Below, in pieces: positions 4,475 through 57,800 of a stretch of 64,000 nucleotides of DNA (position 1 is the first letter of the stretch; every line of letters starts with the position of its first letter). A model generated the notes under the pieces. The model ran no database searches, was not told where the DNA came from, and saw nothing but the letters and a program-made list of their open reading frames with translations. A program made the translations under genes and the position numbers. Origin of the DNA: Antedon mediterranea (taxonomy: Eukaryota; Echinodermata; Crinoidea; Comatulida; Antedonidae); the NCBI RefSeq assembly GCF_964355755.1, contig NC_092670.1:41155795-41219794 (forward strand), in the 5' to 3' direction.

Positions 4475-7400
4475 CTGATTTTTTGGCTTGTATTTGGCAC
4501 ATTCACGAAGAACAACACTAGAACCTTTATCCATGACTGAGCCTGATGATTCTAAACACTTTCCTAGCCCAAGGTTCATCAACTGAAAAACATTTATACA
4601 TCACATTATACCACATTATTTAATCTGTTTCACATTGTTTCATTATTATCACTATCGGAAAACAAGGATTGGATGAAGCAAACTGCGCTTAAAGATGTAT
4701 TGTCCTCCAAAACAAACAAAATAAAGGTAATGTACAATAAAATCTAACTTTGAATAGGCCAGTTTTATTGGGTAAATAAGTGCATTACTATTATGTGATA
4801 TTAAAAAGGCCTATTAAAAAAAACTGGTTTCATTATTTTTCACAACATCTTTAATATCAAATCCAATAAACTGTCACACCTGTTTTATAAACTGTCACAC
4901 CTGTTTTATAAACTGCCACACCTGTTTTATAAACGGTTACACCTGTTTTATAAACTGCCACACATGTTTTATAAACTGCCACACCTGTTTCATAAACTGT
5001 CACACCTGTTTTATAAACTGTTACACCTGTTTTATAAACTGCCACACATGTTTTATAAATTGTCACACATGTTTCATAAACTGTCACACATGTTTCATAA
5101 ACTGCCACACCTGTTTCATAAACTGCCACACTTGTTTTATAAACTGTCACACCTGTTTTATAAACTGCCACACCTGTTTTATAAACTGCCAAGCATGTTT
5201 TATAAACTGCCACACCTGTTTCATAAACTAAACTGTCACACCTGTTTTATAAACTGTTACACCTGTTTTATAAACTGCCACACATGTTTTATAAACTGCC
5301 ACACATGTTTCATAAACTGTCACACATGTTTCATAAACTGCCACACCTGTTTCATAAACTGCCACACCTGTTTTATAAACTGCCACACCTGTTTTATAAA
5401 CTGCCACACCTGTTTTATAAACTGCCACACCTGTTTCATAAACTGTCACACCTGTTTTATAAACTGCCACACATGTTTTATAAACTGCCACACCTGTTTT
5501 ATAAACTGTCAAACTTGTTTTATAAACTGCCACACATGCTTTATTCATGTTCCGCCTAAATCATAATAAATTACCAACTCAATTTTACTCCTATTTTCAA
5601 AATTGTAATCATTCTTACAACACCAGATCTTCAACTGCAAAAAATCTGATATACGAAAAGCATACCATATTACTTAGAAGAACATCTTTTATTTACAATG
5701 GACCGTATATATGGAACAACTTACCGCTCAATCTAAAAGCAATAACCATCATAAATACATTTAAAACAAAATACAAACAAACACTTTTTTCAAACTATTT
5801 AGAACATTAGTAATTCACAATTGCCTTAAGACTGTTTTTTTTTTCTTTTTTGTGCCTTTTGTTTAATTTTATTTGTCAATTTGACGAAAGAAAGAAGTTT
5901 ATTTTTGTTCTCTCACTTAAATTAAATAATTAAATATATTAATTATCTGGAGGACCAAACTTAAAGCCTTGGCTTAATGCGTCCTCCTCACACAATTGTT
6001 TTTATTAATTTATGTTACTGTTCTATATTATTGTATTGTGTGAAACAATAAACTTGAAACTTGAACTTTATAAACTGTCACACCTGTTTTATAAACTGCC
6101 ACACCTGTTTCATAAACTGTCACACCTGTTTTATAAACTGCACACCTGTTTCATAAACTTACCTGTCCTTTTTGTTTTGGTACCATTACTTTCTTCTTAG
6201 GTCTTACAAATGGCTTAGGATTGCTATCAGTTGGTAATGCTAATTCAGGATAGACGTTATCTAGGTACCATTTAAATGGCTTACACTGTAATCGTTGCCT
6301 TAAGGCCACTCTGCTGCTTATATCACCATACTGAATTTTACGTGCATTAGGCTTAACATTATAAAAATGTTCCTGCAATTTCAATATATGTAAAAGAATC
6401 AATATTTGACTTTAATCTATTTTATACATGAGCAGTGTTGCAGCAATTATTACTGTAAATTAATGTTTCCATCTTACCTTGAATATGTTCAATCTTAAAT
6501 TGAATGTGAATAGTTTTGAATACATTATTATGTTGCAGGCCTTGTCTTTTGAAAATTACATGTGTGCTACAAATTGCACTCCTTAACACATTCAGGGGGT
6601 GCTGTATGTGTGCTGTTTGTATCTTGGTAGGTAGAAGATTATCAAATTTAAGTGTGTTGTAAATCACACTTCTCAAGGGCAGTTTAGGAGTGTTAGGTGA
6701 GTGATCGAACCCCCACATCTCAACAAGACAAGGCCTGCTTTTGAACGTCACATGTCTACTTGCTTATATATACAAGAATCTGTAATAAGTGAGGAATAGT
6801 AATGCTAAAACAATTCCTCATACCTTGTATTCATCCATCCAAACTTCAGCAACTCGAATCGAATTCTTTGTTGTTGTGTCGCCTCCTTTTGGTGAGCCAT
6901 ACGGACGACGTTTGCGAAATACGTGACCGACCCGAGAACATGGAATTATCTCAAGTATACCTCCACATTGCCATATCTGTTGATGAAGAATTATAAAAAG
7001 ATATATTCAAAATATCTAAACAAAAGGTATATATAAAGATTTCTACTGTATAATGAAATATATAGATATATATGATCTTTAAAATGAGCCAAACTTACTC
7101 TGAAAGAGATTTCCAGATTTTCCCCACCCCATATATCCATGCCGTCATCATAAGCACCTAACTCATAGAAATATGATCTATCCATTGCAAACAGTCCACC
7201 AGCCATTGTTGGAGACCTGTCATAAGCACAAACAAATTATAGAAAAGAGGGATAATTTTTTGATAATTAATTTTTACAAATTTTAATGTAGCCTTTGTCA
7301 CAATAATAACTAAATTACATGACTAAATTTTGTAATTCATTTGTTTCAAAAAATAAACTCATCTAACTGGCCGAATAAGAGACTGTTTTTTTTTTAATAA

Positions 7401-10400
7401 TCCAATCACATATTATCCCACTTAAAGTGTAACCCCCAGTTAAATCTACCCTTCACCAAGGGTGACGTCGTGTAAACTCACCTAACTGGCCGAATAAGAG
7501 ATTGTTTATTCCTATAATCCAATCTCATATTATCCCACTTAAAGTGTAACCCCCAGTTAAATCCACCCTTCACCAAGGGTGACGTCGTGTAAACTCACCT
7601 AACTGGCCGAATAAGAGATTGTTTATTCTTATAATCCAATCTCATATTATCCCACTTAAAGTGTAACCCCCAGTTAAATCCACCCTTCACCAAGGGTGAC
7701 GTCGTGTAAACTCACCTAACTGGCCGAATAAGAGATTGTTTATTCTTATAATCCAATCTCATATTATCCCACTTAAAGTGTAACCCCCAGTTAAATCCAC
7801 CCTTCACCAAGGGTGACGTCGTGTAAACTCACCTAACTGGCCGAATAAGAGATTGTTTATTCTTATAATCCAATCTCATATTATCCCACTTAAAGTGTAA
7901 CCCCCAGTTAAATCCACCCTTCACCAAGGGTGAAGTCGTGTAAACTCACCTAACTGGCCGAATAAGAGATTGTTTATTCTTATAATCCAATCTCATATTA
8001 TCCCACTTAAAGTGTAACCCCCAGTTAAATCCACCCGTCACCAAGGGTGACGTCGTGTAAACTCACCTAACTGGCCGAATAAGAGATTGTTTATTCTTAT
8101 AATCCAATCTCATATTATCCCACTTAAAGTGTAACCCCCAGTTAAATCCACCCTTCACCAAGGGTGACGTCGTGTACTCAAATGTGTCTGCATTAATGAT
8201 ATCAATGATTGGTACTGTGACAGTCGTCCTGTCCTTTTGTATTTCTGTTAACAATGGTTCCAGCCATTTCACATTCACCTACAACATGAAACATTAATGG
8301 TTTGAATCATTAATGTTGAACCAATTCTCGTAAGGACAAGCAAATAAATAAATGACATGCTATTGATAGTTGTATTCATAATTACAAGCAATTACCTGGA
8401 TTGCCTTGATGTAGTTACTGAATGCCAATATGGATAGTATTATTTATTGTACCATTTGTTAGAGTTGTTATCATTAAAGAGATAAACACATGTTTCTATA
8501 TTTAGATGCAAAGCATACATTTGAAATACAAATTGTTCTTTGTGGAAAGGCTTTATGGATTTCAATTAAATTTTAAAATAAATATTTTATAGATAATTCC
8601 TTAATTTATGAGTTTTTTATATGCATAAAACATTTAAAATCTTATAAAATTTGTAATACAACATTACAACAGATTTTCAGAGCAATGGCCGTCTAAAAAC
8701 ATAAGCACCTGACCCGTAGCATTAGCCGCGCCAACCATACGTCCTCTAATTAATATATTGACACCACAACTTACCTCGCAATGGCCGTCTAAAAACATAA
8801 GCACCTGACCCGTAGCATTAGCCGCGCCAACCATACGTGCTCTAATTAATATATTGATACCACAACTTACCTCGCAATGGCCGTCTAAAAACATAAGCAC
8901 CTGACCCGTAGCATTAGCCGCGCCAACCATACATGCTCTAATTAATATATTGATACCACAAATTACCTCGCAATGGCTGTCTAAAAACATAAGCACCTGA
9001 CCCGTAGCATTAGCTGCGCCACCCGTAGCATTAGCCGCGCCAACCATACGTGCTCTAATTAATATATTGATAGCACAACTTACCTCGCAATGGCTGTCTA
9101 AAAACATAAGCACCTGACCCGTAGCATTAGCCGCGCCAACCATACATGCTCTAATTAATATATTGACACCACAACTTACCTCGCAATGGCTGTCTAAAAA
9201 CATAAGCACCTGACCCGTAGCATTAGCTGCGCCAACCATACGTGCTCTTATTAATCCCTCACGCTTCTGGTTATGGATAACACGTACAAGTGGTGCTAAA
9301 TTACTCCCAACGTAATCATCTAATTGCTTCTTCAAATCAACTTTGAAAACAGAAAAAATATTAATAATCATTTACAATTTAAATGATGATGGATTGCTGA
9401 TAAAGAAATTCACAATTGAAGATATCACAATGACCGCAAGTGTAGACTAAAAATCATTTTGAAAATTTTTCTTTTTTTTTCTATGGAAGTGACTTTATTA
9501 AAACTACAAAATAACATATTCATAGTCTGATTTTATTAATCTTCATTTTTCATGTTTTTGGGGGCCAATATATCTTTAACAATATGTTGACAATGATGAT
9601 AATGTTAATAACTTGTATACAACTAATATTATTAATATGTTGACAATGATGACAATGTTTACTTGTTGCATACAACTGTACTAATAACAAAACGTTGACA
9701 ATGTTAATGCTTAAGCACCTAAAGGGCCCGAAACCGCCCTGCGTATTAACCTAAACCGCCCTGCGTATTAACCTAAACCGCCCTGCGTATTAACCTAAAC
9801 CGCCCTGCGTATTAACCTAAACCGCCCTGCGTATTAACCTAAACCGCCTTGCGTATTAACCTAAACCGCCCTGCGTATTAACCTAAACCGCCCTGCGTAT
9901 TAACCTAAACCGCCCTGCGTATTAACCTAAACCGCCCTGCGTATTAACCTAAACCGCCCTGCGTATTAACCTAAACCGCCCTGCGTATTAACCTAAACCG
10001 CCCTGCGTATTAACCTAAACCGCCCTGCGTATTAACCTAAACCGCCCTGCGTATTAACCTAAACCACCCTGCGTATTAACCTAAACCGCCCTGCGTATTA
10101 ACCTAAACCGCCCTGACTTTTATACACGATGTAGCTCTCGTTCTACGAAGCCTAGCAACAAATCAAAAACAGTGACTTAATGCTTGGAAAATCCCCTTTT
10201 AGAATATGACATCTTTTGTAGCTTCTTTTATTTATTTTATTTATTTCAACTTTATTTATAGAGGGTAACCCTTCCAGCTGAACCCGCAGGTCAGCTGATA
10301 TCCAGGGGCCCTCTTCTATTTGACAAAGCGACGTAATTTCCGTTCAAAGTTCAGAGGTTGGATCTATTGTTTTTGTTTGAAAAAATCATTCGCTGGAATC

Positions 10401-13400
10401 GCATGAACGCGCAGCAAGCTCCCGATTTCTTAGAGAAAGAAGGGTTTTTTAGTCAAAATAACGATTTAGATTTATCTGCCAATAGTGATATCGATGTTTC
10501 ACAAATAAATAGTATATTATGCTATTGAAATTAGTAAATTTTAGGTCATAATTTATTATTTCAAGCCTAGCTAGGCCAGCCTTCAATTGGGAGAAAACAT
10601 GCAGCCTGTCAACCAGGCTACGAATGAGATAGGCTAGTTTGTCTAGCCCAGGCCTAGGCCTAATACCATCAATGAGATATGCTAGTTTGTCTACCCAGGC
10701 CTAATACCGTCAATGAGATAGGCTAGTTTGTCTAGCCCAGGCCTAGGCCTAATTATACCGTCAATGGTCATGATTATAATGTCAAATGTTGACAAAATTT
10801 ATGTTACCAGAAAGGTAATTTAGTATTCTTTTAAATAAATACAACTTGTAATGCAAACTTTTATGAACAAGAAAAAAAATTGTATTTTGTTTGTAATTAA
10901 TAGTCTCTGATTTCGGGTGTCACGAAACCTAAGACCACGAAAGCTAAGACCCCCTAAGACCTAAGATCACGAAAGCTAAGACCCAAGACCTAAGATTACA
11001 AATATTTATCTTTCGCACCTGCCTTGTATTTTAACTTAACTCCCAACATTTATTCTGAATACCACACCTTAGAATTGGCACTTTTATGAAAAAGAATCAC
11101 ATAAAAAGTAACAAATAAATTTTTAAATTGATGATTTTACAGACGTTTTTCTCGCACACAAACTGTTTGCGAATTTCGCATGACTAGCCTACAGTACAGT
11201 AGCAGTAGGCCTACCATGTTCAATGTTTTTGTTTCTATGGAACGTCAACAGAGCAAAAATTATATAGAGGGCTGAAAACTCTGTGGAGTCCATCTACAGT
11301 GTGGATGGAACAATGTAAAATTGTAATTATAATAGTATAATCATGCAAGTACGAAGAAATAAATACTGGCAAATAAATTTTAATTTAAAAATCATGATTT
11401 GTTTCGTTTTCTTTCTGTTTTTATACTTGTACTATTATTGTTGCTCTTTTGGCGCTCCATAGAAACAAAAACATTGAGCATGGGGGGAGCTCGAGGAGTT
11501 ACAGTATATAAAGAAACATGTCTGTAAAATCATCAATTTAAAGGATTTATTTATTTGTTTTTATGTGTTTCTCCATCTGAAAGTACTTATTTTATTTATT
11601 TTATTTTATTTTTATTTTATTAATTTTAGCAATTAAAACAATACACAGACTTTGAGTGTGCCAAGGAGTGGCAAAAGAGGTCGAAGGACCACTGTCGCCA
11701 TAAGGCGTGCCACACCAGCACTCAAAGCATACAATAAAACATAAAACAATGTAAATAAGTAATATAAATACTATGATTATATACATTATAAATCCTAATT
11801 TTAAAGTGTGGTATTCAGGATAATGTTAGTCAACAAATTTGGAGTCAAAATACAAGAAAGGCAGGTGCGTAAGAAAAACATCCTCTGAACCATGGAGTCT
11901 TTACTCCATGTCTGAACCAACACAATGGAGTAAATATATACCAACAAACAACCCGTCAAGTTTGTTTGTTGTAAAGAAAAAATATACATTTACTCAACGG
12001 GCAAAAATAATGTGAGTTTATCTATGTTTTGCGGTAGTATTTAATTATATTTATGGTAATAAATGAAACCTACTGTGTTTAAAATTATGTATGGATAATT
12101 GTTTTTAAGCTGTAGTATATCTTAGAATTTGTAATCTTAGGTCTTGGGTCTTAGCTTTTGTGATCTTAGGTCTTAGGGGGTCTTAGCTTTCGTGGTCTTA
12201 GGTTTCGTGACACCCCTCTGATTTCTTATATATTTAAATAATTGTAGAGGAAGAAATATACTGTACAACATTACATTATTGCTTTAGGTGCTAAGGGGTT
12301 AATAACTTGTATACAGTACAACTGGTATTAACAAAATGATGACAATGCTTTAGGTGCTAATGGGTTAATAACTTGTATACAATACAACTAGTATTAACAA
12401 AATGATGACAATGGTGATATTTTGCATACAACTGATATTAACTAGATCAACAGGTTGACTTACCACGATCGCTAAAATCATCTACTAGAATAATCTCTTG
12501 TAAAAGAGAGTGTGGTGTTCGATCAAGTACGCTATATACAGTACGTAGTAAAGTTGACCAGGCTTCATTATAAAAACAAATAACTATGCTTGTTTTTGGC
12601 AATGTAGTTGGGTAACTTAAACTTGAGCACCTGCAAAAAGATTAAGCCTTAAGTGTTTATAAAAACCTTTAAGTTTGGTAATAACAGAATAAACATGATT
12701 AAAATGACAAAAATGATAATTCTTATAAGATCATGATAATGCAAGATACTTTATTCATCTTTGTAAAAGAACAAAGAAATGTTGGTTGATAGAAATTCCA
12801 ATTAAAAAGATATCTACTGTATAGCACATAAATGATTTAAAAAATGACAAAAAGTAGACTACAGTAGAGTAGAATTTGGCACTGAGCAAGATAAGATGCA
12901 CTGGAAATATGTCAATAAATTAGGTAAAAAAAGTCTCCAGAAATGATCAACCAACCATATATTATTTATAACTACAAAGTAATGAATGTTGTAGTCTGAC
13001 CATGGACCTAATTTATAGGTCCATGGTGATCAACCAACCATATCATTTATGACTACAAAGTAATGAATGTTGTAGTCTGTCCATGGACCTAATTTATAGG
13101 TCCATGGTGATCAACCAACCATATCATTTATGACTACAAAGTAATGAATGTTGTAGTCTGACCATGGACCTAATTTATAGGTCCATGGTGATCAACCAAC
13201 CATATCATTTATGACTACAAAGTAATGAATGTTGTAGTCTGACCATGGACCTAATTTATAGGTCCATGGTGATCAACCAACAATATCATTTATGACTACA
13301 AAGTATTAATGAATGTTGTAGTCTGACCATGGACCTAATTTATAGGTCCATGGTGATCAACCAACCATATCATTTATGACTACAAAGTAATGAATGTTGT

Positions 13401-16400
13401 AGTCTGACCATGGACCTAATTTATAGGTCCATGGTGATCAACCAACCATATCATTTATGACTAAAAAGTAATGAATGTTGTAGTCTGTCCATGGACCTAA
13501 TTTATAGGTCCATGGTGATCAACCAACAATATCATTTATAACTACGGTACAAATTAATGAATGTTGTAGTCTGTCCATGGACCTAATTTATACTGTAGGT
13601 CCATGGTGATCAACCAACCATATCATTTATGACTACAAAGTAATGAATGTTGTAGTCACTCTGTCCATGGACCTAATTTATAGGTCCATGGTGATCAACC
13701 AACCATATCATTTATAACTACAAATTAATGAATGTTGTAGTCTGTCCATGGACCTAATTTATAGGTCCATGGTGATCAACCAACCATATCATTTATGACT
13801 ACAAAGTAATGAATGTTGTAGTCTGTCCATGGACCTAATTTATAGGTCCATGGTCTGTCTAATAAATCTCTTTCCTAAGTTGAACTTGGCTGCTTCCTCA
13901 AATTATACAAATTACTGTGGAAGATCGGAAGACACATTTCCACTAATTTATGTGTTATTTCATTAAAAATGATATGAAAGGATTTTAAAATTTCAAAAAA
14001 ATATTTTGTAAGAATCCTTTAAATGTGAATGAACAACACAGCAAAAATTAGATTCAAATACCTAGTAGAACTTAAGAAATACATAAATGAAATTTTAGTA
14101 TAAAACCTCTGTAAAATTATGATCATCTGGATATTATCACACAGTGCAAATTTAATGTTTAAAATGTCACAATTACGATTACAATATTCTAATAACAAAA
14201 GAATAATTACTCACAAATCAATATGATGATAAAACTTTTGGTGGTGCTGATAATATATTTAAAAAATGATTAAGCTAAAAGACTTATGACTAATATATAG
14301 ATCATGTATTTTCCAAGGTTTTACTATTCATTTATAGATTTCTAGCCAAGATTTTAATTTATTCTAAAATCTCAAACTCTGTATACTCAGTCACTATCCA
14401 ACTAAGTATATGAAGAAATCTATTTTTGTTTTCAGTTTGTTATGTCAATTGGTTTTTTAGGTCTTCTACTATAGACACAATCTTGATAAAAACAACACCT
14501 CTAGGGTATTCTAGATACGAAATGATTTCTGTATTCTGTGATTTTGTCACTATATATTTTTTAATTGAATTTAATAATCAATATTGCAAATAATTCTTGA
14601 TATATAATTATGGATAATAAGAATATTTAAGAAGGAAATCATTAAAAATGGATCAATTTTAGGAAGCATTAATGTGGCAGATGTTATATTAATGCTTGTA
14701 TTGTATCATGTGACATGTAGTTAAAGTTTAAAGAGAAAGTTGTTTTGTTGTTGTGATCTCTGTTAACATTTAATCTATTTTTTATATTTTATAATCAAAT
14801 ACTTCATTATCTAGAATTCATGTCTGTACCTGAGCTTTGTTATTAGCATAGCACTCTAGCAACTTGCCACAATCCTATTTTATCAAATACTTCATTATCT
14901 AGAATTCATGTCTGTACCTGAGCTTTGTTATTAGCATAGCACTCTAGCAACTTGCCACAATCCTATTTTATTCTGTTTTATTAAAAAATACCATTTCACT
15001 TATTAAAAAGATTGAAAACATAACAATAAAAAAGATCACAATTTATACACTTTTACTAGATTAAATTTAGTCTGCTAAAGCAACTTTTCATTAATTAAGT
15101 AATATAGTGAGTCCCCACAGTGAACTAGTATATAGAGAGTACAGTACTGTATTTAAGTAATATAGTGAGTCCCTACAGTGAACTAGTATATAAAGTACAG
15201 TACTGTATTTAACATAGCAAGTCCCTACAGTGAAATAGTATATAAAGTACAGTACTGTATTTAACATAGCAAGTCCCTACAGTGAAATAGTATATAAAAT
15301 ACAGTACTGTATTTAACATAGCAAGTCCCTACAGTGAAATAGTATATAAAATACAGTACTGTATTTAACATAGCAAGTCCCTACAGTGAAATAGTATACA
15401 AATAATGAATGTTTATGAGTGCAATGATACAAATAATGGCAAGAGGTGAATGATGAAAGGTTATATCAACGAGGCAAAGCCGAGTTGATATAACCTTTCA
15501 TCATTCACCAAGTGCCATTATTTGTACCATTACACGAATACAAAACATTCATTATTTGTTTTATATAACATCTAAATAACAAACAAAAATGTTTCAAAAA
15601 GTACTATTTAACGATCGTTGAATAGTGCGTACTATTGCACGCCATGTGACCCACATTCGTCCAATCAAATGACAGGAATTTATATAGGTGTTATATAATA
15701 TATAAAATACAGTACTGTATTTAACATAGCAAGTCCCTACAGTGAAATAGTATATAAAATACAGTACTGTATTTAACATAGCAAGTCCCTATAGTACTGT
15801 GATAGAGAATTTAATACAGCAAGTCCCTACAGTGATTTGATAGAGTGTTTAATACAGCAAGTCCCTACAGTGATTTGATAGAGTATTTAATACAGCAAGT
15901 CCCTACAGTGATTTGATAGAGTATTTAATACAGCAAGTCCCTACAGTGATTTGATAGAGTATTTAATACAGCAAGTCCCTACAGTGATTTGATAGAGTAT
16001 TTAATACAGCAAGTCCCTACAGTGATTTGATAGAGTATTTAATACAGCAAGTCCCTACAGTGATTTGATAGAGTATTTAATACAGCAAGTCCCTACAGTG
16101 ATTTGATAGAGTATTTAATACAGCAAGTCCCTACAGTGATTTGATAGAGTATTTAATACAGCAAGTCCCTACAGTGATTTGATAGAGTATTTAATACAGC
16201 AAGTCCCTACAGTGATTTGATAGAGTATTTAATACAGCAAGTCCCTACAGTGATTTGATAGAGTATTTAATACAGCAAGTCCCTACAGTGATTTGATAGA
16301 GTATTTAATACAGCAAGTCCCTACAGTGATTTGATAGAGTATTGGGACATTTTCAAGCAAGCAATTAACTTGTTTACTAGGTTTTAATACATTACAATAT

Positions 16401-25104: not shown

Positions 25105-31872
<6,768 letters not shown>

Positions 31873-41549: not shown

Positions 41550-44500
41550 TCACCTGTCAACAGTGGATAATTTCACTGTCTTTTTGTCGTTCAATAAACT
41601 TTGTTTACGTTGTCTAATAATCCTTGTTATTGGTTCCAAAAGAGCTTTTGGGTTTCTGTACGGCATTGTGTGGTCTGCACCATTCAGTAAAATGTGTTTG
41701 CTTCCAGGGTGTAGGTTGCTTATTAGGTTCTGCTGAGCCTTGGCCCAGGCCTACAAAATAAGTTATAAAATGTGTTTACTTCCAGGGTGTAGGTTGCTTA
41801 TTAGGTTCTGCTGAGCCTTGGCCCAGGCCTACAAAATAAGTTATATAATGTGTTTAGGGTGTAGGTTGCTTATTAAGTTCTGCTGAGCCTTGGCCCAGGC
41901 CTACAAAATAAGTTATATAAAGTTGATATTTTCTCATTCTGCTAGACTATACAGATCAATCAAAACAAAGTGAGGTGTGTGTAGTATTATGATCCTGATT
42001 ATTTCCATTCAAAGTACTCGACTTGGTTAAAATTCAAATATTCAAAAAATGCAACATACTTGACCGAAATATATAAAAGATGAACTATATTGTGTTGCTT
42101 GTGCAGCAGTGCATACTTACCTTATTCAATGTGTTTGGTAATTGTTCATCATAGTAGTTACCAGTTATGACTGTTACTCCGACATGTTTAGGAAATGGTT
42201 TGATACGCCAAGCAGTCCTAATCAGAAAGGAACACTTGATTGTCATTCACAAATACACATTTAAAACAACATTATATTTGGCAAAGGTAAAATGAACTCA
42301 CCGAATCTGGGACAAACTTTCATTAATAAAGTAGTGTTCATCCACAACTGTACTCAGATGATGTGGTTGGCACATAAGGTATTTCTGTAAAATATCCAAA
42401 AACATATGAGCTAAATAAAAGAAAAATAACGCTAAAAAATAAGGGTCATTCTCAAGTTAAATTAATTAAAGAGAACTGTGAAAAATTAAATTGTATTGAC
42501 CTACCTGTCTATACTCCACATCCTCTGGTAAATCAGAGTTTTTGATTGGCTGATTCATTAAGTTTAAAAGAAGGCCGATTCTTGAGGCACCAATAGCAGC
42601 TGAGAGTTGAAGTGATTGATATGATGGTATTAGATGATCAAACCTACAAATAAATGGATTTAAATAAACTGTTAACAAACTACAGAATTTGTGGTTAAAC
42701 CCATTTAGGTTACTAAATCAATAAACGTAAATCAGTACTTACCAGAATTTTCCCCAAATACCTTCATCAATTCCGAACAAGCCCTCAACTAATGGATCAA
42801 TCAAAACAAGATCTGAAATTTCACTAAAAAGAAAAAAAAGGACATAAATTACATAAAGTTACTATTAAGGATATAAAACTTTACTTTAATGAATGGTATT
42901 GGTCATGTTAGACTCACTTTTCATATAACTGTGTGTAAAACAACTTTACTTTAATGAATGGTATTGGCCATGTTAGACTCACTTTTCATATAATTGTGTG
43001 TAAAACAACTTTACTTTAATGAATGGTATTGGCCATGTTAGACTCACTTTTCATATAATTGTGTGTAAAACAACTTTACTTTAATGAATGGTATTGGCCA
43101 TGTTAGACTCACTTTTCATATAATTGTGTGTAAAACAACTTTACTTTAATGAATGGTATTGGCCATGTCAGACTCACTTTTCATATAATTGTGTGTAAAA
43201 CAACTTTACTTTAATGAATGGTATTGGTCATGTCAGACTCACTTTTCATATAATTGTGTGTAAAACAACTTTACTTTAATGAATGGTATTGACCATGTCA
43301 GACTCACTTTTCATATAATTGTGTGTAAAACCTGGCAATCAATGATCCCAATTCAGAGCCTACAAAAATGAATGGTTGAGGTTGGTCACTGCTGACTGTT
43401 AGTAACTGGTGCAGATCATCAGCCATCCTACAAAACAAAAACCAACATTTATTACAAGAATGTTGGATGTTATCAAATCTGTTTTTTAGAAACATAATCC
43501 CAACATAAGCTGTGCTATGTATTCATTTGATATGTTCATGCACAAATTGAATGCAAGTTTGAAATATTGATGTGAGTAGTATAAACAAGAGTGTTTATAT
43601 GTTTACACTAGGCCAAGAAACACTTTAAAATAACTCAAGACCTGAGAAATAGATGTTTGAACAAAGCTAATGAAGATGTAAACATTTACATCAGGAGGAT
43701 TAGACAAATTATATACATATGTGAGCCTTTAATACTGCGTGCAGTCATGTTTTTATATTCTTTGCTATATTGACTGACCTTTCAACAGTAAATTCCTCAG
43801 CTCTACTATCACCCATGAGAGAATTGTTACCATCACTTGAATTCTTTTGGAAATAAAAACATAAGTATCTTTCCAAATTAATTATTAATTTATACATATT
43901 TTAAAATCTATTATTATATGATTGAAAACATAAAGTGAAATGATTGTACTGTAATTCATTACCCTTGGAGCACGCTCACTGAAACCAATTCCTGCTCTGT
44001 CATATACACATACCTAAGATAAAAACACAAATTAATTAAAGCTAAAGAAGAACATCTAAGAGGATACAAAATTATATCAATTTGAAAATCAGGAAGTCTG
44101 CCTTCGAATATTAAAAACCACAGTGATAGAGATAAAAAAAATAAATTGTACAATGAATTTTACATTCAAATTTATACAATACAAAACAAACTTGTTTACC
44201 CTTGCAACCTTTGCTAACTGTGGCAGTATAAAGTACCAAACAACTTACCCTTGCAACCTTTGCTACTGTGGCTGTATAAAGTACCAAACAACTTACCCTT
44301 GCAACCTTTGCAAACTGTGGCTGTATAAGGTACCAAACTTACCCTTGCAACCTTTACTACTGTGGCTGTATAAAGTACCAAACAACTTACCCTTGCAACC
44401 TTTGCTAACTGTGGCTGTATAAAGTACCAAACAACTTACCTTTGCAACCTTTGCTACTGTGGCTGTATAAAGTACCAAACAACTTACCTTTGCAACCTTT

Positions 44501-47500
44501 GCTACTGTGGCTGTATAAAGTACCAAACAACTTACCCTTGCAACCTTTGCAAACTGTGGCTGTATAAAGTACCAAACAACTTACCTTTGCAACCTTTGCA
44601 AACTGTGGCTGTATAAAGCGTGGTTTCCACTAGCGACGCAACGCAAGGACGTAACGCAACGCAAGTGAATTGACCAATCACAAGCGATGGCTTATTCGCT
44701 TGTGATTGCTAACTGTCTATAACTTCGCTTTTCATTGGTTAACACGCTTGCGTTGCGTTTACGTCCTTGCGTTACGTTCTAGTGGGAACCAAGCCTTAGG
44801 TACCAAACAACTTACCCTTGCAACCTTTGCAAACTGTGGCTGTATAAAGTACCAAACAACTTACCCTTGCAACCTTTGCAAACTGTGGCTGTATAAGGTA
44901 TCAAACTTACCCTTGCAACCTTTACTACTGTGGCTGTATAAAGTACCAAACAACTTACCCTTGCAACCTTTACTACTGTGGCTGTATAAAGTACCAAACA
45001 ACTTACCCTTGCAACCTTTGCTAACTGTGGCTGTATAAAGTACCAAACAACTTACCTTTGCAACCTTTGCTACTGTGGCTGTATAAAGTACCAAACAACT
45101 TACCTTTGCAACCTTTGCTACTGTGGCTGTATAAGGTACCAAACAACTTACCCTTGCAACCTTTGCAAACTGTGGCTGTATAAGGTACCAAACAACTTAC
45201 CCTTGCAACCTTTGCAAACTGTGGCTGTATAAGGTACCAAACTTACTCTTGCAACCTTTACTACTGTGGCTGTATAAAGAAACAAACAACTTACCCTTGA
45301 AACCTTTGCTAATTGTGGCTGTATAAAGTACCAAACAACTCACCATTGCAACCTTTGCTAACTGTGGCTGTATAAAGTACCAAAAAACTTACCTTGGCAA
45401 CCTTTGCTACTGTGGCTTTATAAAGTACCAAACAACTTACCCTTGCAACCTTTGCTAACTGTGGCTGTATAAAGTACCAAAAAACTTACCCTTGCAACCT
45501 TTGCTAACTGTGGCTGTATAAAGTACCAAACAACTTACCCTTGCAACCTTTGCTAACTGTGGCTGTATAAAGTACCAAACATCTGAGCTCATTCCAGTAG
45601 GAGATTCCAACAAAACTAAAAGACAAACTAGATTTAATTCGTCACTATGACGAATTATAGGTTATATGCATTGATTTAAATAAAGATACAGTAATTGATT
45701 TTTAAAAGATATATTGATTGATTAATTTTTTCAGAATCTTTAATTATTTATAATATATGATAGGACCTTGCTAACGCGAACACCATAGCCGGTATCACAA
45801 TCCGATCAAAGATCCATATGCGTATAATGTCATAAACCACATTTGTTGTTACATAATAATAAAGACATAAGTTAATTTTTATCTAGATTTAATTATAAAT
45901 CATGTGTATAATCTATACACTAAGAAATAAATTTGAACAAACAATACGGATAATAAAAAAAAATCTTATTTCGTTTCCCAAGGTGAGACTCGATCTCGGT
46001 ACCTTGAACGCCATAGACACGAGCACAGACCATCGAGCCATACACAACTGACTAAAAGTCGTAGAAAAATTCTTCCGTGTATTTACTATGCAGTAACCAC
46101 TTTGGTGCAAATAGATTATTACATACCGAAATGAATTATAATTTTTTACTATGATGACATCTTTAAAATGTAAACAAATGATGCACTTTCAAACTACATA
46201 CTTTTAACTTTAATATATGAACTTTTGAAGGAAGAAAGTTAATGTTAAGTTTGTTATTTTGGCCTAAGAAAATGTCATAATTTGTTTGATTGTCGAAATT
46301 AATTTTTGTAAATTTAATATGCCATTAATGATGACTTAATCGACTTTTGTTCTCTTAATTTCATAATAAATCATACATATGATACATACACTTCAAGAAA
46401 ATGAAATAAAAAATCGGTGTTCCCGAGCATTCTAACGATATACTGTATATTAATTTTAAAATTTAGCATATTTTCACCATTTTGTTAACTTACACGTGCG
46501 TAGCCTGTCACTTTTGACGTGCTCGTATAACGCTGTTTCGCGTTGAAAAGTGAATAAAATATGATGATATTATTAAAGAAAGGTTATACAACAGTAATCG
46601 GACAAAAACAGTGCGCATTAACGTTTGACGCGCAGTGCGCGTGCAATAATCTGCGCACTCATGGCAATTTTTTAAACGCTTAAAATTGCCTGAAAAGTAC
46701 TCTAATTTCATCGAAAATAAATTCTGACAATTTTCAACATTTTAAGCGCGCGTACGCATGCGTTATATGCGCTACGCACGTAATTGTATTGCCATATGAT
46801 GAAATATGACCTGAAATTTATGAGTACCAAATTTTGTTTAATTGTGATTCATGCTTGTGAAGATATGATTACAAACGTGATTTCGTTAAATCGCGCGTAG
46901 ACCGCGTAATTTTTGATTGCGCATCGTGAAAACATAACCACATCGATTCCTGGCCATAAGGAATATACTCTGAAAAATTGACTTAGTTAGATGAAACTGA
47001 TATCAAGATAATTGACGGACAAATAGTGCTAAGGAAAGAATAAATAAATAAATAAATAAAGAAATAAATAAAGATTCTGACAGAATCAAGAGGTTATATG
47101 CATGAATATAACTTTAAATCTAAGTGTGTATACTTAAGTAACACAGTTGGTGGACCTGTGCCATTACATAACAACAACTTCTGTCCCCATTTAATATCAT
47201 ACATAACTTTAAATCTAAGTGTGTATACTTAAGTAACATACCAGTTGGTGGACCTGTACCATTACATAACAAAAACAACTTCTGTCCCCATCCAATATCA
47301 TACAATTCACCTCCTATAATAACAAAAATGTTATATTAACATGAAATCATTAAAGCATTTACACTATGTAATCCTAAATTAGTTTTATATCATATTTATC
47401 AAGTCCTTTAAACTAAATTAGTAACTGTGTATATCTGTACATACCAGGTGGCATTAAGTACTGAGCTTCCCGAATTAAGGCAGCATGGTTTAAGATTGCC

Positions 47501-48915: not shown

Positions 48916-49110
48916 CGGAGGTAATTTAGCATAATTTAATGTTTTTACTTTTTATACAGTATTTGTTATTAATTAATAGACCTAATTTAGACTTAAGAAT
49001 AAGATTGTGTGAATAAGAAAGAATAATTAACATTTGATAGTGACTTTGTCATTTTACAGTGGATGGATTCTAGAATATTCAAATTAACTTTATAATACAG
49101 TATACACTAC

Positions 49111-49999
49111 TATGGAACGCCGTTTACGCAACATTTCAATGATATAAATTTTATGACGGGTTATGTGAATGAAATGCATCGATATGAATTGAATGGCGCG
49201 ATATATGAATGAAATGTTTTGAATTTAATGCTTTGAATTGAATATTTTGAATGAAATGTTTTGAATGAAATGTTTTGAATGAAATGTTTTGAATAAAATG
49301 TTTTGAATGAAATGTTTTGAATGAAATGTTTTGAATGAAATGTTTTGAATGAAATGTTGTGAATTGAATGTTTTGAATGAAAGGTTTTAAATGAAATGTT
49401 TTGAATGAAATGTTTTGAATGAAATGTTTTGAATGAAATGTTTTGAATGAAATGTTTTGAATAAAATGTTTTGAACGAAATTTTTTGAATGAAATGTTTG
49501 AATTGAATTGAAAAGTCAAACTATTGGCGGCGTATGTCATTCCCGATTCCGCGATTTTTTTCTCAACCTCTTAAGCCTGGGTACCCTCTGGGCCTCATTT
49601 CCTTTCCACGCTGCCTAGAATCCTAACAGACCTGGCTTTGGAAATATGCATTCCACTGTTTCAGGTCTGTTAGGATTCGCGTGGAAAGGAGATGAGGGTA
49701 CCCAGGCTTAATTGCCTAAGAGGTTGAGAAAACAATCGCGAGCGGGAATGACATACGCCACCAATAGTTTGACTTTTCAATTCAATTAAAACATTTAGTT
49801 CCAAACATTTCATTCAAAACATTTCGTTCAAAACATTTCATTCAAAACATTTCATTCAAAACTTTCAATTCAAAGCATTCAATTCAAAATAATTATTTCA
49901 TTCATATATCGCGCCATTCAATTAATATCGTAGCATTTCATTCACATATCTCGTCATAAAATTCATATCATCGAAATGTTGCGTAAACGGCGTTCCATA
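49111..49999. mobile_element. Foldback element with minisatellite arms
   Basis: 889 bp. The left end TATGGAACGCCGTTTACGCA and the right end TGCGTAAACGGCGTTCCATA are perfect inverses, and inverted similarity continues inward for most of ~420 bp. The flanks carry a 6-bp direct repeat CACTAC (49105-49110 and 50000-50005). The left arm holds about 20 copies of a 14-bp unit (GAATGAAATGTTTT); the right arm has far fewer copies of its inverse. The centre has a second inverted pair, AAGCCTGGGTACCCTC near 49573 and its inverse near 49695. The long open frame at 49151-49540 comes from the 14-bp repeat. Confidence 0.85.
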
Positions 50000-50386
50000 C
50001 ACTACACTAGCCTAGCAGTCACAGCTGAAACCCTCGTCCCTGGTGGCCTGGGCCGACGTGTACTGAGTCCTGGCTTACTTAGTCTTGTTTAAAACTCTCA
50101 CTCATCAACCAAAACACCAACCAGATCAGTGCTAAAAACAAAAAAGCTCACTACTACTAGCTTTCCACTTCTGTTCTACACTAACTTACTTCTATATATG
50201 GAGTAAATTCAAACAAAATCGGATGATATCACCGTATATATTTAAAAAATGTTTTTTTCTTATTAAACACCACTGCCACACACACACAACAAGCATGTTT
50301 TTTATACGACGATCCATCCGCCGCCACCAATTTATTCAAGCGTGACAATCACTGGAATCATCGAAGCGTGAAAGATTATATCCAGC

Positions 50387-53300
50387 ATGCAGGTTAACAA
50401 CCACAGTACACAAGTTGGAAAAACCACCACCACGAGCGAGTCGAGTAGAACGCGAGGAAAAAGGATGGCTAGGTCAACTGCTGAAGAAATTGATGATGTT
50501 GCAGGCCTTTTTGCAGAATTTTGTGTCGTAACTGGAGCTTCGGAAGGTGAAGCACTTGAATATCTACAAAAAACAAATTGGCAAGTCGTGGTAAGTATAA
50601 AGCCAGCTAAAATCGGATAAAAACATCACTCACTCAAATCTCCATTATGAATTTGCATTAAATTAGTGATCGTATTGGTCGGCACACCTGTGGGGTGTCA
50701 TGACATTTTAATAATACACACACGTCATAAGTAGATTTTTGTTATTGGAGGAGGACTGTGCATGGGTCACATGATATTATAAATGACAACTTCTATTGCA
50801 CTTTTAATGATGTCATCGAGAGTGCAATGTTGTTCCATTGCTCTCAGTCTCATATAACCATTCATATGTATACTATCGGGTATACTAATGCGTCTGATTT
50901 ATTTCTACTCAAAAAATACAAAAAAAGATGGCCGGCACACAAGATTTCTGAGACATAATCTGTTCAGAATATGCTAATTTTAAATACTAATGTTATTCTA
51001 TGTTTTGTTATTGAGGATGCAATCAACCTATACTTTGATACAGTGGCAAACCAACCAGATGATGATGAGAATGGAACAAGCTCAAATTCAAAAGACAGGT
51101 ATTTAATTCAGCTTTTAAAACAAGATTTTGGATCAAACAACAAAATAAATTTTGAAAAAGATACTGGCATGTGCATGTCTTTTATTTTTACAGTCTCAAA
51201 GTTGAAGGCAGTAAAGAAAAAGAAGACAAAAAGATAAAAATGATAACATGGAATATTGATGGTCTTGATGACCGGAATTTAATAGACAGAACAAAAGCAG
51301 TTTGTAGTATAATAGAGAGGTATATCAAGTGACTCATTTTAACATACAGGTGACCCTTGTACTCCTAACCAATCACAATCAACTAAATGCAGTTTGTAGT
51401 ATTATAGAGAGTGATGACTCATTTCTATTAACATACAGGTGACTCTGGTACTCTCAACCAATCACAATCAACTAAATGCAGTTTGTAGTATTATAGAGAG
51501 TGACTCATTTCTATTAACATACAGGTGACTCTGGTACTCTCAACCAACCACAACAATGTAGTTTAAACCATTCAGGATCTTCTTTCTTGAACAGTATGAT
51601 AGAATCGGACTGGGTTCATGTTGAACATCTATCTCTAGTTTGTTTTATCATAAAGCTTGTTTTTTGTTTACCTATAAATTGTATATCTTTACTAATTATT
51701 GTATATCTTTACTAATTATTGTATTTATTTCATAAGACTTGAACCAGATATCATCTTTCTCCAAGAGGTCATAGTTGAAACAGCATCTCACATCGAAAAA
51801 CGATGCCAAAAATACAAAGTGCTACCAACAAGTGATGCTGCATACTTCACTGCTATGATGTTGAAAAAAAGTAGCGTTTCAATTCTTTCAAGTATTGTTG
51901 ATCCATTTGAGAATACAACGATGATGAGGGCGCTTCACAAAGTCAAGGTTTATCATTTTATTTTTTACTAATTTTAACATTAATGCTACTTTACAAATAT
52001 TTGATAACACAGTAGGTCTACAGTTCAACGTTTAGCTACACCAACAAAGTATTTCTGACAAATGTACAGTATTATTATATGTTGGGTACAATTGTTTTTG
52101 CTAGGTGAAATGTGCCGGAATAGAGTTCCTTCTGTTGAATTCTCATCTTGAAAGCACAAAAGATGCAAGTGGTAAACGCAAAAGACAGTTTCAGATGGCA
52201 CTTCAAGAAATGTGCAATTCTAACGATGGTACTGTTGCCTTGTTTGGAGGGGACACCAACCTACGAGACAGTGAGGTAAGTGAACACCAACCTACGTGAC
52301 AGTGAGGTAAGTGAACACCAACCTACGAGACAGTGAGGTAAGTGAACACCAACCTACAGGACAGTGAGGTAAGTGAACACCAACCTACGTGACAGTGAGG
52401 TAAGTGAACACCAACCTACGAGACAGTGAGGTAAGTGAACACCAACCTACAGGACAGTGAGGTAAGTGAACACCAACCTACGTGACAGTGAGGTAAGTGA
52501 ACACCAACCTAAGAGACAGTGAGGTAAGTGAACACCAACCTACAGGACAGTGAGGTAAGTGAACACCAACCTACGTGACAGTGAGGTAAGTGAACACCAA
52601 CCTACGCGACAGTGAGGTAAGTGAACACCAACCTACGCGACAGTGAGGTAAGTGAACACCAACCTACAGGACAGTGAGGTAAGTGAACACCAACCTACGT
52701 GACAGTGAGGTAAGTGAACACCAACCTACGTGACAGTGAGGTAAGTGAACACCAACCTACGCGACAGTGAGGTTAGTGAACACCAACCTACAGGACAGTG
52801 AGGTAAGTGAACACCAACCTACAGGACAGTGAGGTAAGTGAACACCAACCTACGTGACAGTGAGGTAAGTGAACACCAACCTACAGGACAGTGAGGTAAG
52901 TGAACACCAACCTATGAGACAGTGAGGTAAGTGAACACCAACCTACAGGACAGTGAGGTAAGTGAACACCAACCTACGAGACAGTGAGGTATTAGTGAAC
53001 ACCAACCTACAGGACAGTGAGGTAAGTGAACACCAACCTACAGGACAGTGAGGTAAGTGAACACCAACCTACAGGACAGTGAGGTAAGTGAACACCAACC
53101 TACGTGACAGTGAGGTAAGTGAACACCAACCTACGTGACAGTGAGGTAAGTCATAATGAACACAGTCCTCTGACAAACATACAGTGTACACAAGATGCTC
53201 AACATAAACAAATCTTGGGATTAGTAGCTGACCAACCTTCCACTCCACGTACTTGGTGCATAAAACAGGCAACAAGTCAGTGTATTTAGAAAGATATTTG

Positions 53301-53652
53301 GAAAGACTATTAAAATAATAAATTTCATCATTTTAAAAATAGTTTATTAATTTAACAATGATTTTAGGTGAAAAGTATTGGAGGGTTACCTGGAGGAATT
53401 GTTGATCTATGGGAAATGTTTGGAAGTCCAGAAGAATCAAGATACACATGGGATGTCAAAAGAAACAATAACCTAGATTGGCAATTTGCAAGCAAACCAA
53501 GAATAAGATTTGATAGATTGTTCCTGAAACAAGCAAAGCAGCAACAAGTTCATCTGCAAACTTTTAAACTCATTGGAGACCAATGGATTTCAACAGTTGA
53601 GCGATTTCCAAGTGATCATTTTGGCATTTACTGCGAGTTTAAAGTAAATTAA
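50387..53652 (+). CDS. TDP2: Tyrosyl-DNA phosphodiesterase 2
   Basis: Repairs topoisomerase II lesions by cleaving 5'-phosphotyrosyl bonds between protein and DNA; nuclear, EEP phosphodiesterase family. Exons 50387-50590, 51016-51098, 51194-51319, 51737-51947, 52105-52275, 53368-53652; 1080 nt, 359 aa. The ATG at 50387 opens a short basic, Ser/Thr-rich leader. A UBA-like domain follows (about 28-85, EEIDDVAGLFAEFC...NWQVVDAINLYFD), then a variable acidic linker. The catalytic domain keeps all four active-site motifs: TWNIDGLD (N116), FLQEV (E148), GGDTNLRD (D258) and SDHFG (H349). Length is close to vertebrate TDP2. The intron after exon 5 is almost wholly a 31-bp array made from the exon 5 tail and donor. 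Convergent with Argonaute. Confidence 0.97.
51295..51545 (+). repeat. ~90-bp duplications of TDP2 exon 3 tail
   Basis: The exon 3 end (AGTTTGTAGTATAATAGAGA then G/GTATATC) recurs at about 51391 and 51480, followed each time by ACATACAGGTGAC and CCAATCACAATCAACTAAATG. Both copies read AGAGAGTGA where the real junction reads AGAGAGGTATA, so the duplicated donors are lost. Confidence 0.88.
52255..53152 (+). repeat. 31-bp array of TDP2 exon 5 tail plus splice donor
   Basis: About 29 tandem copies of a 31-bp unit: ACACCAACCTACGAGACAGT, GAG, GTAAGTGA. The first is the true end of exon 5, encoding the catalytic GDTNLRDSE. All the others lie in the intron and nearly every one keeps GAG/GTAAGT. Variants are confined to the RD codon region (CGAGAC, CGTGAC, CAGGAC, CGCGAC), alternating in blocks of about three. 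A 31-bp period is out of frame, so only the first donor preserves the protein. Confidence 0.97.
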
Positions 53653-53659
53653 TTTGAAC

Positions 53660-54435
53660 CAGTGCTAAACTTGACTTTGATTTTGTAAATTAGAGTGAAC
53701 CAGGTGTAATAAGACGTGATTTCCGTTTCTTTTATTACCTCTTTATTGTTTGTGATTATTATATCAAACCAGTTACTTACAAAAAAAAACCATATTTGTC
53801 ATAAAACTAAAACAAATATAAATAAATATAAATTCAAATATATTCTAAATAAATCTTGCACAAAATGTTTAATATTTGGTATTTTCAGGGAAGGAAACTG
53901 TTGGGCGACATGTTTATGAAAATGAAATGATTATGCTATAAAAATGCTTGTTAAAATCAGGTAACCTGGATTATTTAAATCGGGTAACCTGGATTATTTA
54001 ACAAATTGTACATGTTGTATTATTACTACTAATTGATTTCCACTAGCTTTTTATTTGCAAAAATTATATTATAAAGTTTAGTATCAGATTATAAGCACAT
54101 GCTAAACCAAAGACAAGCTTGTACTCAACCACCTTGTATGTAACATTTATACTTGCAATCATTATTGTTATATGGTTATAAGTCATTTTTGATATTTAAG
54201 CCCTTAGTCAGGCTTCTCATATAAGTTGGTTTTTCTATAAAAGGGGCAAATATTGTCAAGAGCAAGTCTACTGTAATTAAGAAAGAGGGGTTTTCGTTCT
54301 AATCCACTGGCTACAGGCTTGCTATCAAAACAATAAAATAATATTCTTCTGCCAAACATTTGGACACCTTCTTCTTTTAATTCCTTCTGAGTTTGCATTT
54401 CTTATTTTTCTTATATTACAGTTAAGTATGTACAC
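53660..54435. other. Convergent intergenic region, TDP2 and Argonaute 3' ends
   Basis: AT-rich. AATAAA at 53821 and again near 53849 could serve the TDP2 mRNA. A short direct repeat (GGTAACCTGGATTATTTAA) is at about 53960-54000. No coding sequence is seen. Confidence 0.5.
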
Positions 54436-54439
54436 ATTC

Positions 54440-54885
54440 CGTTTAGTAGAGCACTAAATGAACTTAATGTTACGCATAATACATGCGACTATTTTGTTTT
54501 ACGTCTATTTCAACAGTGTTGTTCATTTTCTTTTAATGTACGTACACATTCCGTTTAGTAGAGCACTAAATGAACCTAATGTTACGCATAATACATGCAA
54601 CTATTTTGTTTTACGTCTATTTCAACAGTGTTGTTCATTTTCTTTTAATGTACGTACACATTCCGTTTAGTAGAGCACTAAATGAACCTAATGTTACGCA
54701 TAATACATGCGACTATTTTGTTTTACGTCTATTTCAACAGTGTTATTCATTTTCTTTTAATGTACGTACACATTCCGTTTAGTAGAGCACTAAATGAACC
54801 TAATGTTACGCATAATACATGCGACTATTTTGTTTTACATCTATTTCAACAGTGTTGTTCATTTTCTTTAGTTCTTCACTTGTTA
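54440..54885 (-). repeat. 112-bp array spanning the Argonaute stop codon
   Basis: Four units of 112 bp. The first in transcript order (about 54780-54885) carries the real last codons, ending SRMYYA and TAA at 54808-54806. The next three repeat the same end-of-CDS, stop and 3' flanking block (54440-54770) in what should be the 3' UTR. Copies differ by only a few bases. The open frames on the plus strand are by-products. Confidence 0.9.
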
Positions 54886-57800
54886 TTTTAGGCTGGTCAC
54901 TGCCTCCGCTGTTTGTTGTGCTTCCAGAGTCGCTAAACAAAATAAAATAAATGTAGTCACACAATTGTTTCCATTAATGTACACATTGTGTATTATTTTT
55001 ATTCAACTTTACTTCTTGAATGAACCAAGTAATGACATGACTAGCAGTGCAAGTACATACCTGAACCTGAGATCACTGTATAAAATATCTCTAGCTCTGA
55101 AAGCAGCGTGATGTGCGTAATAGGCTGGACTTGGAATGGACGTACTCCGTGTACAGCGGGCATATGTATAACACATTTGATTGGTAAATTCTTCGAGCTG
55201 ATTTTGTGTGAAATCATTATCATCCCACAACACGTAATAATGAGCTGGACGACTTGTTCCCTGTCATTCAGAGAGAAATGTTGTATTTTTTACTTGTCAG
55301 TGAAAATAAGTCGACCAATGAAGAAATTTGTCTATTAATAACTACCAAATATACAGGCAGTAATCATTGTCCAATTGGATCATAATGATTATAATCATAA
55401 TTATCAATCAATAACTTCATTATCATTTACCTGTATTCCAGCATGGCTGCAAAGGAAAAAGTCCCAATTGACAGGGTGTGTAATATCCCTATCGACAATG
55501 GTTCCTGCCGGTACATTGCGACCACGTCCATTCTGTAGAATTTATATTTAAGTTTTTATTTCAATTGGTGGCCTTTTTGTGTAGAATTGTGTAATTTACA
55601 AAATAGCTTGAAATTAAAGTGTGTTTACCTCATCTCTCCTGTCTACACAAAACAGGCGAGTGTGATGGCGTTTCTGCACGGTCAAAAATGTGATTCCTGG
55701 TTTGTATTCTGAATGCAATGATGAACAAGCCCTGCGAATCGCCATTAGCTCACTGTCCAAAACCTTGTTTGAAAAAAAAATATAAGATCAAAAGAAAACA
55801 AAGTTTGGAAAATTAACATAAATTGGTCACCTGAGAATTGACCCAATACCTACTTGCTGAAACTGCCCTTCACTAACACCATCTCTGTACATGATTATTT
55901 TCTTTGGTTGAACTCCTGTGCACTTTTTAAAATTAATGAGTAATTCTGTCACCATTTTGTCTAAATCTTCAATAATTTCTTGTCTATGTGCTTGAACTTT
56001 GACCTTAGCATCATACTTGAATGTATGTTTGTCCTTACTACCAACCACCTATAAATAATACACCAAGTGTTAGGGTTAGGGCATCAAGTGTTTTATTTTC
56101 ACTGAATATACAAATAAAAACTTTAAACAATTTTAGATAACATTATTTGACCAATACAGTAGTCTGTTTTTGTTGCAAATTTAATCAAAACGAACAATTC
56201 TTACGGCAGCTATTGACGGTCTGTGAAAATCTCCAGGAGACGGGTGTGTGACGTCAGCACCAAGGACTAAGGCTGGTTCTCTCATAACAGAAGACCTTAA
56301 AGTATTTAATTCAATATTAAGCTCTGTCTACACTATCAAACTTTATGTGACAACAAAATGTGATGTGCCCATATATAGACATGATGACATACCACAATAT
56401 TTGGGCATATCGTTACCATATTTGCTTTTAACTATTATTACAGATTGACTGTATCTGGCACAAATCAAATGAAAACTCACAAAAATGAGCGACAATCTAT
56501 AATCGATTGAATTTTATAGTATTTGGTAAATCTGTGGTAAAAATGTTGGGTTAAAAAAAATTCATGAGGCAAAACTCTCCCTTAGCAAAAATGGTCCACA
56601 GGCCTGTCAAGAGTGTCAGCCCAGAAAACACACAATTGTAATTTGATTATATTAACTGCCCAGCAAATACAACCCAAGGGTACTATTAGGTCATTTACAA
56701 CAAGGTCACCTGGACAGCTCATGAAAATTCTACATGCATGGTTTTCAGCAAATTCTGTAGTGAAGTGTCTGTCACACTCCAGCTGGCCTCTCATGTGTGT
56801 CAAGATAAATAATCAGAACTCGTAAATTGTTTAAAACAGACCAAGATTTATTACCCGGAGTTTTTCAAAAACCCGGGTGAAATGGACTGATTCTGCTAAG
56901 TGAGAGAAATGCCTAATGTGTAATTTTGGACGCCTGTCTAATAATGGAACTTTATAAATGACACTCTGAATAGTAGTATTGTACTCAAATGTATGGATTT
57001 ATCAAAGAAAAGTAATACATTACATTTGATTGATGACATTATTAATGCCTCCAAGTTTAGCATTGATTTTTAAACAGATGTTCTCCATTGTGCGAGGGCT
57101 TGCTTTCTTGGCATTTTTCAACTGTATATTTTGTGTTGCTATACCAACTTGAGCATCACCAGCATTTTTTATGTCACCTAGAAAAATATAATAAACAATC
57201 GCCTTTAATTAATCAATTGCAATGTAGTTTTTACAGCCAATAGTAATTTTGATACCATGTTTTGTACTACTAATATACGAATTAAAGTGAAAACTTATTG
57301 AGAAAAACAAAGCTTACAAACAAAATAGAAAGTTAAAATTATTAAAATTGTAGGTGTTTGTACCTAACAACCCAACCCAATTTCCACAACCGTACTGCAG
57401 GGCTATCTACATACTGAACATGACAACCAGAAATAACAACTTACCATAAATATCGTTACCTTTACCAGGTAACACAATAAATATAAGCTGAAGACCTTGA
57501 TGTTCTTGACAGTAGAACTGAAACATTTTTACAAAATCCACATTATGTGGACTTTCATACTGAACAAAACTGGCGCTTGCCATTGGCATTCCTATCTTAG
57601 CTGATGTACCTGTCAACACATCATGCATGTTACTGCAAAAATACAATAAATAACACAATTAATATCTATATTAGTAAATTATACATACAAACATACAGGG
57701 GTAAAATATATCTCAAATAAGCAACTTTATGTCTATTGTTATGACTGTATATACAGCTTTGCTGATTTTTAAACCATATATCTTTTTATCTATTTTGTAC

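What the first reader, a model, noticed from the sequence alone, without database searches (positions are those of the whole stretch)
4475..54932. Window-wide class of splice-junction-anchored tandem arrays
About nine arrays begin inside a coding exon. Donor-type: 8675, 7357, 42880, 44195, 47105, 51295, 52255. Acceptor-type: 41690. Stop-codon-type: 54440. They occur in four unrelated genes, with units of 31, 48, 65, 78, 90, 96, 99, 112 and 117 bp, and in nearly every case the extra copies sit on the non-coding side. One explanation is survivorship: tandem duplications across a junction are tolerated because splicing hides them. Another is that splice sites or co-transcriptional structures seed expansion. 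Either would be a general way this genome lengthens introns and creates new splice sites.
Basis: partly seen in the sequence, partly recalled or inferred. Interest (0 to 1): 0.9.

Follow-up and report, generated by a model that had tools for sequence, protein, structure and literature searches.

The report
Exon-edge tandem repeats hidden in introns
In this animal genome the last stretch of some exons, together with the splice signal that follows, has been copied 2 to 29 times into the intron; the same kind of repeat ('mirage') was already described in amphioxus, and outside this window it seems no more common than the genome's general load of tandem repeats would produce.

Summary
The nine arrays are real: seven span a splice donor, one an acceptor, one a stop codon, in four genes (GALNT, an alpha/beta-hydrolase, TDP2, Argonaute). 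Splicing at the exon-proximal site gives proteins that match solved homologues without extra sequence (tested for GALNT and TDP2), so the extra copies are inferred to be intronic or 3'UTR. The phenomenon is not confined to the window: CCT7 has three donor-spanning arrays, and one myosin junction carries 1, 2, 3 or 8 copies in different paralogues. However, in conserved exons picked without regard to repeats, 2 of 114 donors and 1 of 116 acceptors are spanned, against 1.4% (CI 0.9-2.0%) expected from local array density. Genome-wide, tandemly repeated consensus donors show no clear excess over dinucleotide-matched words. The window (5 of 52 donors by the same test) is a repeat-rich, selected outlier. 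Extra donors change no faster or slower than the rest of their units, and breakpoints scatter around the junction. Best explanation: random tandem duplication, kept where splicing or translation termination hides it; seeding by splice sites is not needed. These are 'mirages', known in amphioxus. New here: a different genome, very high copy number, a stop-codon form, and a copy-number series.

The parts
8682..9255 (-). GALNT donor-spanning array: exon 9340-9180, donor 9179; unit 96 bp = 76 exonic + 20 intronic, about 6 copies
   Evidence: first-donor protein aligns to GALNT1 without insertion
7354..8176 (-). GALNT donor-spanning array: exon 8278-8067, donor 8066; unit 117 bp = 110 exonic + 7 intronic (GTGAGTT), 7 copies
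47100..47304 (-). Hydrolase donor-spanning duplication, about 101 bp x 2; donor 47241; the second copy has lost its GT
   Evidence: not listed by TRF
44196..45581 (-). Hydrolase donor-spanning array: donor 45538; unit 48/49 bp, about 43 exonic + 6 intronic, about 28 copies, interrupted near 44620-44800 by an inverted-repeat insertion
42877..43331 (-). Hydrolase donor-spanning array: exon 43427-43308, donor 43307; unit 65 bp = 24 exonic + 41 intronic, 7 copies
41688..41917 (-). Hydrolase acceptor-spanning array: authentic exon starts at 41750; unit 78 bp, 3 copies, extra copies upstream in the intron
51293..51553 (+). TDP2 donor-spanning array: donor 51320; unit about 90 bp, 2-3 copies, later copies lack the donor
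52253..53151 (+). TDP2 donor-spanning array: exon 52105-52275, donor 52276; unit 31 bp = 23 exonic + GTAAGTGA, 29 copies, 27 with an intact AGGTAAGT
   Evidence: found only at this locus in the genome
54422..54869 (-). Argonaute stop-codon-spanning array: unit 112 bp, 4 copies; extra copies lie after the first stop codon
   Evidence: Piwi domain; Argonaute homology of the preceding exons

Best explanation
These are minisatellites ('mirages') made by ordinary local tandem duplication whose unit happened to cover an exon edge. Duplication is frequent all over this genome. Copies inside coding sequence are mostly removed by selection, but a unit across a donor is silent if the splice machinery uses the exon-proximal site, which gives the shortest exon; a unit across a stop codon is silent because translation ends at the first stop. 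Once silent, the array expands and contracts by slippage or unequal exchange, carrying identical spare donors as passengers. Shown: anatomy, uninterrupted first-donor proteins, spare donors evolving like the rest of the unit, copy-number differences between paralogues, and a sampled frequency matching array density. Inferred: actual splice-site use, the duplication mechanism, and selection as the filter.
For: First-donor proteins align without insertion at the array junctions: GALNT, TDP2, CCT7. Sampled frequency: 2/114 donors and 1/116 acceptors against 1.37% (bootstrap CI 0.89-1.95%) for non-exonic windows weighted to ancestral copies. Donor columns of the copies are neither clearly more nor less conserved than the rest of the unit. 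The intronic part of each unit varies but is never under 6 bases, just enough to keep the first donor whole. At one myosin junction, ten paralogues have 1 copy and three have 2, 3 and 8; single-copy relatives of the 2- and 8-copy loci keep about 27 bp of exon sequence in the intron. The unit across the acceptor would read into a stop codon if the first acceptor were used.
Against: In the window donors exceed the local expectation (5/52 against 3.3%, P = 0.03) and arrays cluster by gene (rough permutation P = 0.004), which plain randomness does not predict unless duplication rate varies locally. Donors outnumber acceptors overall (7/166 against 2/174, P = 0.10), which is unexplained if both are equally hidden. 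No RNA data were available. The sample is small: the true donor rate could lie between 0.2% and 6%.
Confidence: 0.72

Rival explanations
1. Splice donors, or co-transcriptional structures at them, seed tandem duplication, so junctions are mutational hot spots.
For: Three of five donors in one stretch of CCT7 and seven donors in three window genes carry arrays; gene clustering P = 0.004, with approximate donor counts per gene. A myosin paralogue whose intron flank resembles the other subgroup has the same breakpoint as the array-bearing subgroup, which could mean recurrence.
Against: No excess in the unselected sample; repeated consensus donors are not clearly commoner genome-wide than matched words; breakpoints are not fixed relative to the GT. 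Shared myosin breakpoints can also come from gene conversion or descent.
Confidence: 0.13
2. The arrays are functional: spare donors act as decoys, alternative splice sites or U1 docking sites, and are kept by selection.
For: Most spare donors are intact, e.g. 27 of 29 exact in TDP2.
Against: Donor columns are no more conserved than other columns; two arrays have lost the spare donors; most paralogues of the myosin gene have no array; in the GALNT 117-bp and TDP2 31-bp arrays use of later donors would give a stop codon or a frameshift.
Confidence: 0.05
3. New introns are being created here by tandem duplication of exonic AG|GT sites (Rogers model) or by mobile introners.
For: Units contain AG|GT, and tandem duplication is a published route to new introns (PMC2891723; PMC4974935, abstract only).
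Against: The units contain 6-65 bases of intron, so the intron came first; first-donor splicing already gives the complete protein; the TDP2 unit occurs nowhere else in the genome, unlike an introner.
Confidence: 0.04
4. Assembly artefacts (collapsed or expanded reads) create the arrays.
For: Long tandem arrays are error-prone in assembly.
Against: Copies differ by point changes and indels, one array is interrupted by an insertion, and several paralogues show the same unit with different copy numbers. Exact copy numbers may still be wrong.
Confidence: 0.03

Closest known systems
'Mirages' of amphioxus (Adh3, globins BflGb6/BflGb9, troponin C, PGBD5; PMC3087553, PMC3902484)
   Same: Minisatellite-like tandem repeats whose unit spans an exon-intron boundary, at donors or acceptors, units of about 10-160 bp, extra copies in the intron, many copies with intact AG/GT signals; splicing reported as undisturbed.
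   Different: Different animal genome; up to about 29 copies; a stop-codon version; several per gene; copy-number series across paralogues. Splicing and polymorphism not tested here.
Internal tandem repeats changing gene structure in human segmental duplications (De Grassi and Ciccarelli 2009, PMC2812944; outline read only)
   Same: Minisatellite expansion differing between recently duplicated paralogues, as in the myosin series here.
   Different: By its section headings, half of the variable repeats there modify the protein; here the reading is that the copies are spliced out.
Intron gain by tandem duplication (Drosophila PMC2891723; potato RdRp PMC4974935; Rogers model)
   Same: Tandem duplication involving AG|GT sites.
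   Different: Those duplications lie in coding sequence and create a new intron; here the unit spans an existing intron edge and no new intron is evident.

Membership tests
Mirage (exon-intron boundary minisatellite) | Tandem unit spans an exon-intron boundary | tested here: met
   Eight arrays in the window, three in CCT7, one myosin junction, one kinesin acceptor
Mirage (exon-intron boundary minisatellite) | Both 5' and 3' intron boundaries can be affected | tested here: met
   Acceptor cases at window 41750 and kinesin C5:31795497
Mirage (exon-intron boundary minisatellite) | Normal mRNA splicing is not disturbed | not testable with these tools
   No RNA data; protein homology only supports exon-proximal splicing
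Mirage (exon-intron boundary minisatellite) | Copy-number instability between alleles or cells | tested here: inconclusive
   Paralogues of one myosin junction differ (1, 2, 3, 8 copies), but alleles were not available
Intron gain by tandem duplication (Rogers model) | A new intron arises inside formerly exonic sequence | tested here: not met
   Units include 6-65 bases of pre-existing intron; first-donor proteins are complete
Introner | The same element is inserted in many genes | tested here: not met
   The TDP2 unit is found only at its own locus; tested for this one array only

The most novel reading that the evidence does not exclude
Some genes (TDP2, the hydrolase, CCT7, a myosin family) are true hot spots where donors recurrently seed tandem duplication, so that splicing or transcription itself shapes mutation at exon ends.
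Probability: 0.12. Interest if true: 0.75.

Novelty: new member of a known kind. Interest (0 to 1): 0.4.

Why it matters
An intron with 29 nearly identical consensus donors 31 bases apart, of which only the first should yield the right protein, is a natural test of how the spliceosome chooses among equal sites: first transcribed, or shortest exon. The acceptor arrays can tell the two apart, because there the shortest exon needs the last site. The myosin paralogues give a ready copy-number series for such a test. The findings also extend mirages to a genome other than amphioxus and give a first, rough frequency against a neutral background.

Tried and rejected
Genome-wide word-pair counts are dominated by a few large satellites, so only the absence of a clear donor excess is taken from them; listings are truncated, so distinct arrays could be compared only on parts of the genome, and single-word counts were not obtained. 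The Argonaute donor called at 63018 was rejected: a donor further on fits the reading phase of the next exon, so the 63-bp repeat there looks wholly coding. The original amphioxus Adh3 paper and Gao and Lynch 2009 are not held, so they are known here only through citing papers. No echinoderm paper on such arrays was found. A 'first-come' rule was considered to explain the excess of donors over acceptors; it was set aside as a general rule because two acceptor arrays exist, but the donor excess remains unexplained. About six ways of counting were looked at in all (TRF overlap, uniform window test, word pairs at two spacings, breakpoint position, gene clustering, donor against acceptor), without correction for multiple tests.

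Full report
Observation. Tandem Repeats Finder and direct reading confirm the arrays. Gene models were made from open frames, conserved peptides and splice motifs: GALNT, a glycyl-tRNA synthetase (GARS, recognised by eye), an alpha/beta-hydrolase and Argonaute on the minus strand and TDP2 on the plus strand, with Pfam or PDB support for GALNT, TDP2, the hydrolase and Argonaute. Seven repeats span a donor, one an acceptor, one the Argonaute stop codon. In each donor case the unit is the end of the exon plus the first 6 to 65 bases of the intron.

Which copy is used. Splicing at the first donor gives a GALNT protein that aligns to GALNT1 and a TDP2 protein that aligns to TDP2 with no insertion at the array junctions. 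The same holds for CCT7 outside the window: 257 residues align to human CCT7 without a gap across two array junctions and up to a third. In the 117-bp GALNT array the first extra unit would add a stop codon, and the 31-bp TDP2 unit would shift the frame; the 96-bp GALNT unit is open and would add 32 residues per copy. At the hydrolase acceptor, using the first acceptor would run into a stop. So the exon-proximal site is inferred to be used at both donors and acceptors. This is homology, not RNA evidence.

Outside the window. The genome has 354 Mb in 18 contigs, of which the eleven largest seen hold 353.5 Mb (lengths). Conserved exons were collected by Pfam searches with myosin, aldehyde dehydrogenase, chaperonin and kinesin families, that is, without regard to repeats. 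CCT7 has three donor-spanning arrays (90 bp x 3.7, 85 x 2.1, 87 x 2.2). A kinesin exon has an acceptor-spanning 70-bp array. At one myosin junction, ten of thirteen paralogues carry one copy and three carry 2, 3 and 8; the three single-copy loci closest to the 2- and 8-copy loci keep about 27 bases of exon sequence in the intron just after the donor, either a scar of contraction or the seed of expansion.

Frequency. With one rule for all sites (34-bp window, at least 27 matches to a copy within 230 bp), 2 of 114 donors and 1 of 116 acceptors outside the myosin cluster are spanned. Non-exonic windows in the same segments, weighted so that each array counts as one ancestral unit, give 1.37% (bootstrap 0.89-1.95%), i.e. 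1.6 expected in each class. In the window the figures are 5 of 52 donors and 1 of 58 acceptors against a local 3.3%. The rule misses two degenerate cases in the window, so it is conservative; the same loss applies to the controls. The window is repeat-rich (14% of non-exonic windows outside these arrays have a copy, against 5% in the sample) and was chosen because of the arrays. Genome-wide pairs of the consensus donor AGGTAAGT at 20-50 and 51-81 bases number 372 and 499, within the range of dinucleotide-matched or reversed words (103 to 1990). These counts are dominated by a few long arrays and are only a coarse check.

How the arrays evolve. Donor bases of the copies vary about as much as the rest of the unit, so the spare donors look like passengers. 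Breakpoints lie anywhere in the unit (exonic fraction 0.28-0.94, mean 0.66, KS P = 0.13), but the intronic part is never shorter than 6 bases, as expected if the first donor must stay whole. Arrays cluster by gene (rough permutation P = 0.004, with approximate donor numbers per gene) and donors outnumber acceptors (7/166 against 2/174, P = 0.10). Local differences in duplication rate may explain the clustering; the donor bias is not explained.

What it is. [quoted passage not shown] PMC3902484). The anatomy here meets the definition; undisturbed splicing and allelic instability could not be tested. The arrays are not introners (one array tested) and not new introns of the Rogers type, because the units contain pre-existing intron. 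The stop-codon array in Argonaute is the same logic applied to translation.

Organism. About eleven chromosome-sized contigs would fit some crinoids, but that is from memory only; a literature search did not settle it.

Verdict. A real and well-defined structure of a known kind, best explained by random duplication filtered by splicing. The claim of a general, splice-site-driven process is not supported by the unselected sample, though the sample is too small to exclude a few-fold or local effect.

Noticed in passing
G000 contig C3, about 19.6-25.1 Mb (loci L024-L030, L032, L033, L035-L038 are examples): A large cluster of closely related myosin head genes, about 20 or more copies over some 5.5 Mb on both strands.
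   Followed up: partly
window 44620-44800: A roughly 180-bp insertion with long inverted repeats at its ends interrupts the 48-bp hydrolase array, like a small non-autonomous DNA transposon.
   Followed up: no
window 63015-63140: A 63-bp direct repeat inside the amino-terminal coding exon of Argonaute, encoding [20 protein letters not shown] twice: a coding repeat, not a junction array.
   Followed up: partly
window 49206-49503 and 49788-49889: Two arrays of the same 14-bp unit in opposite orientation (TGAATGAAATGTTT and AAAACATTTCATTC) about 280 bp apart, like an element with repeat-rich ends.
   Followed up: no
window 12944-13854: An 11-copy 81-bp array whose unit ends in a palindrome (CCATGGACCTAATTTATAGGTCCATGG), in a GALNT intron.
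   Followed up: no
L011, L034, L041, L048, L064, L069 (e.g. L069 1336-1406): A dispersed 21-bp tandem motif, about GTGATATGCCCAAATATGGTA, recurs in many unrelated loci.
   Followed up: no
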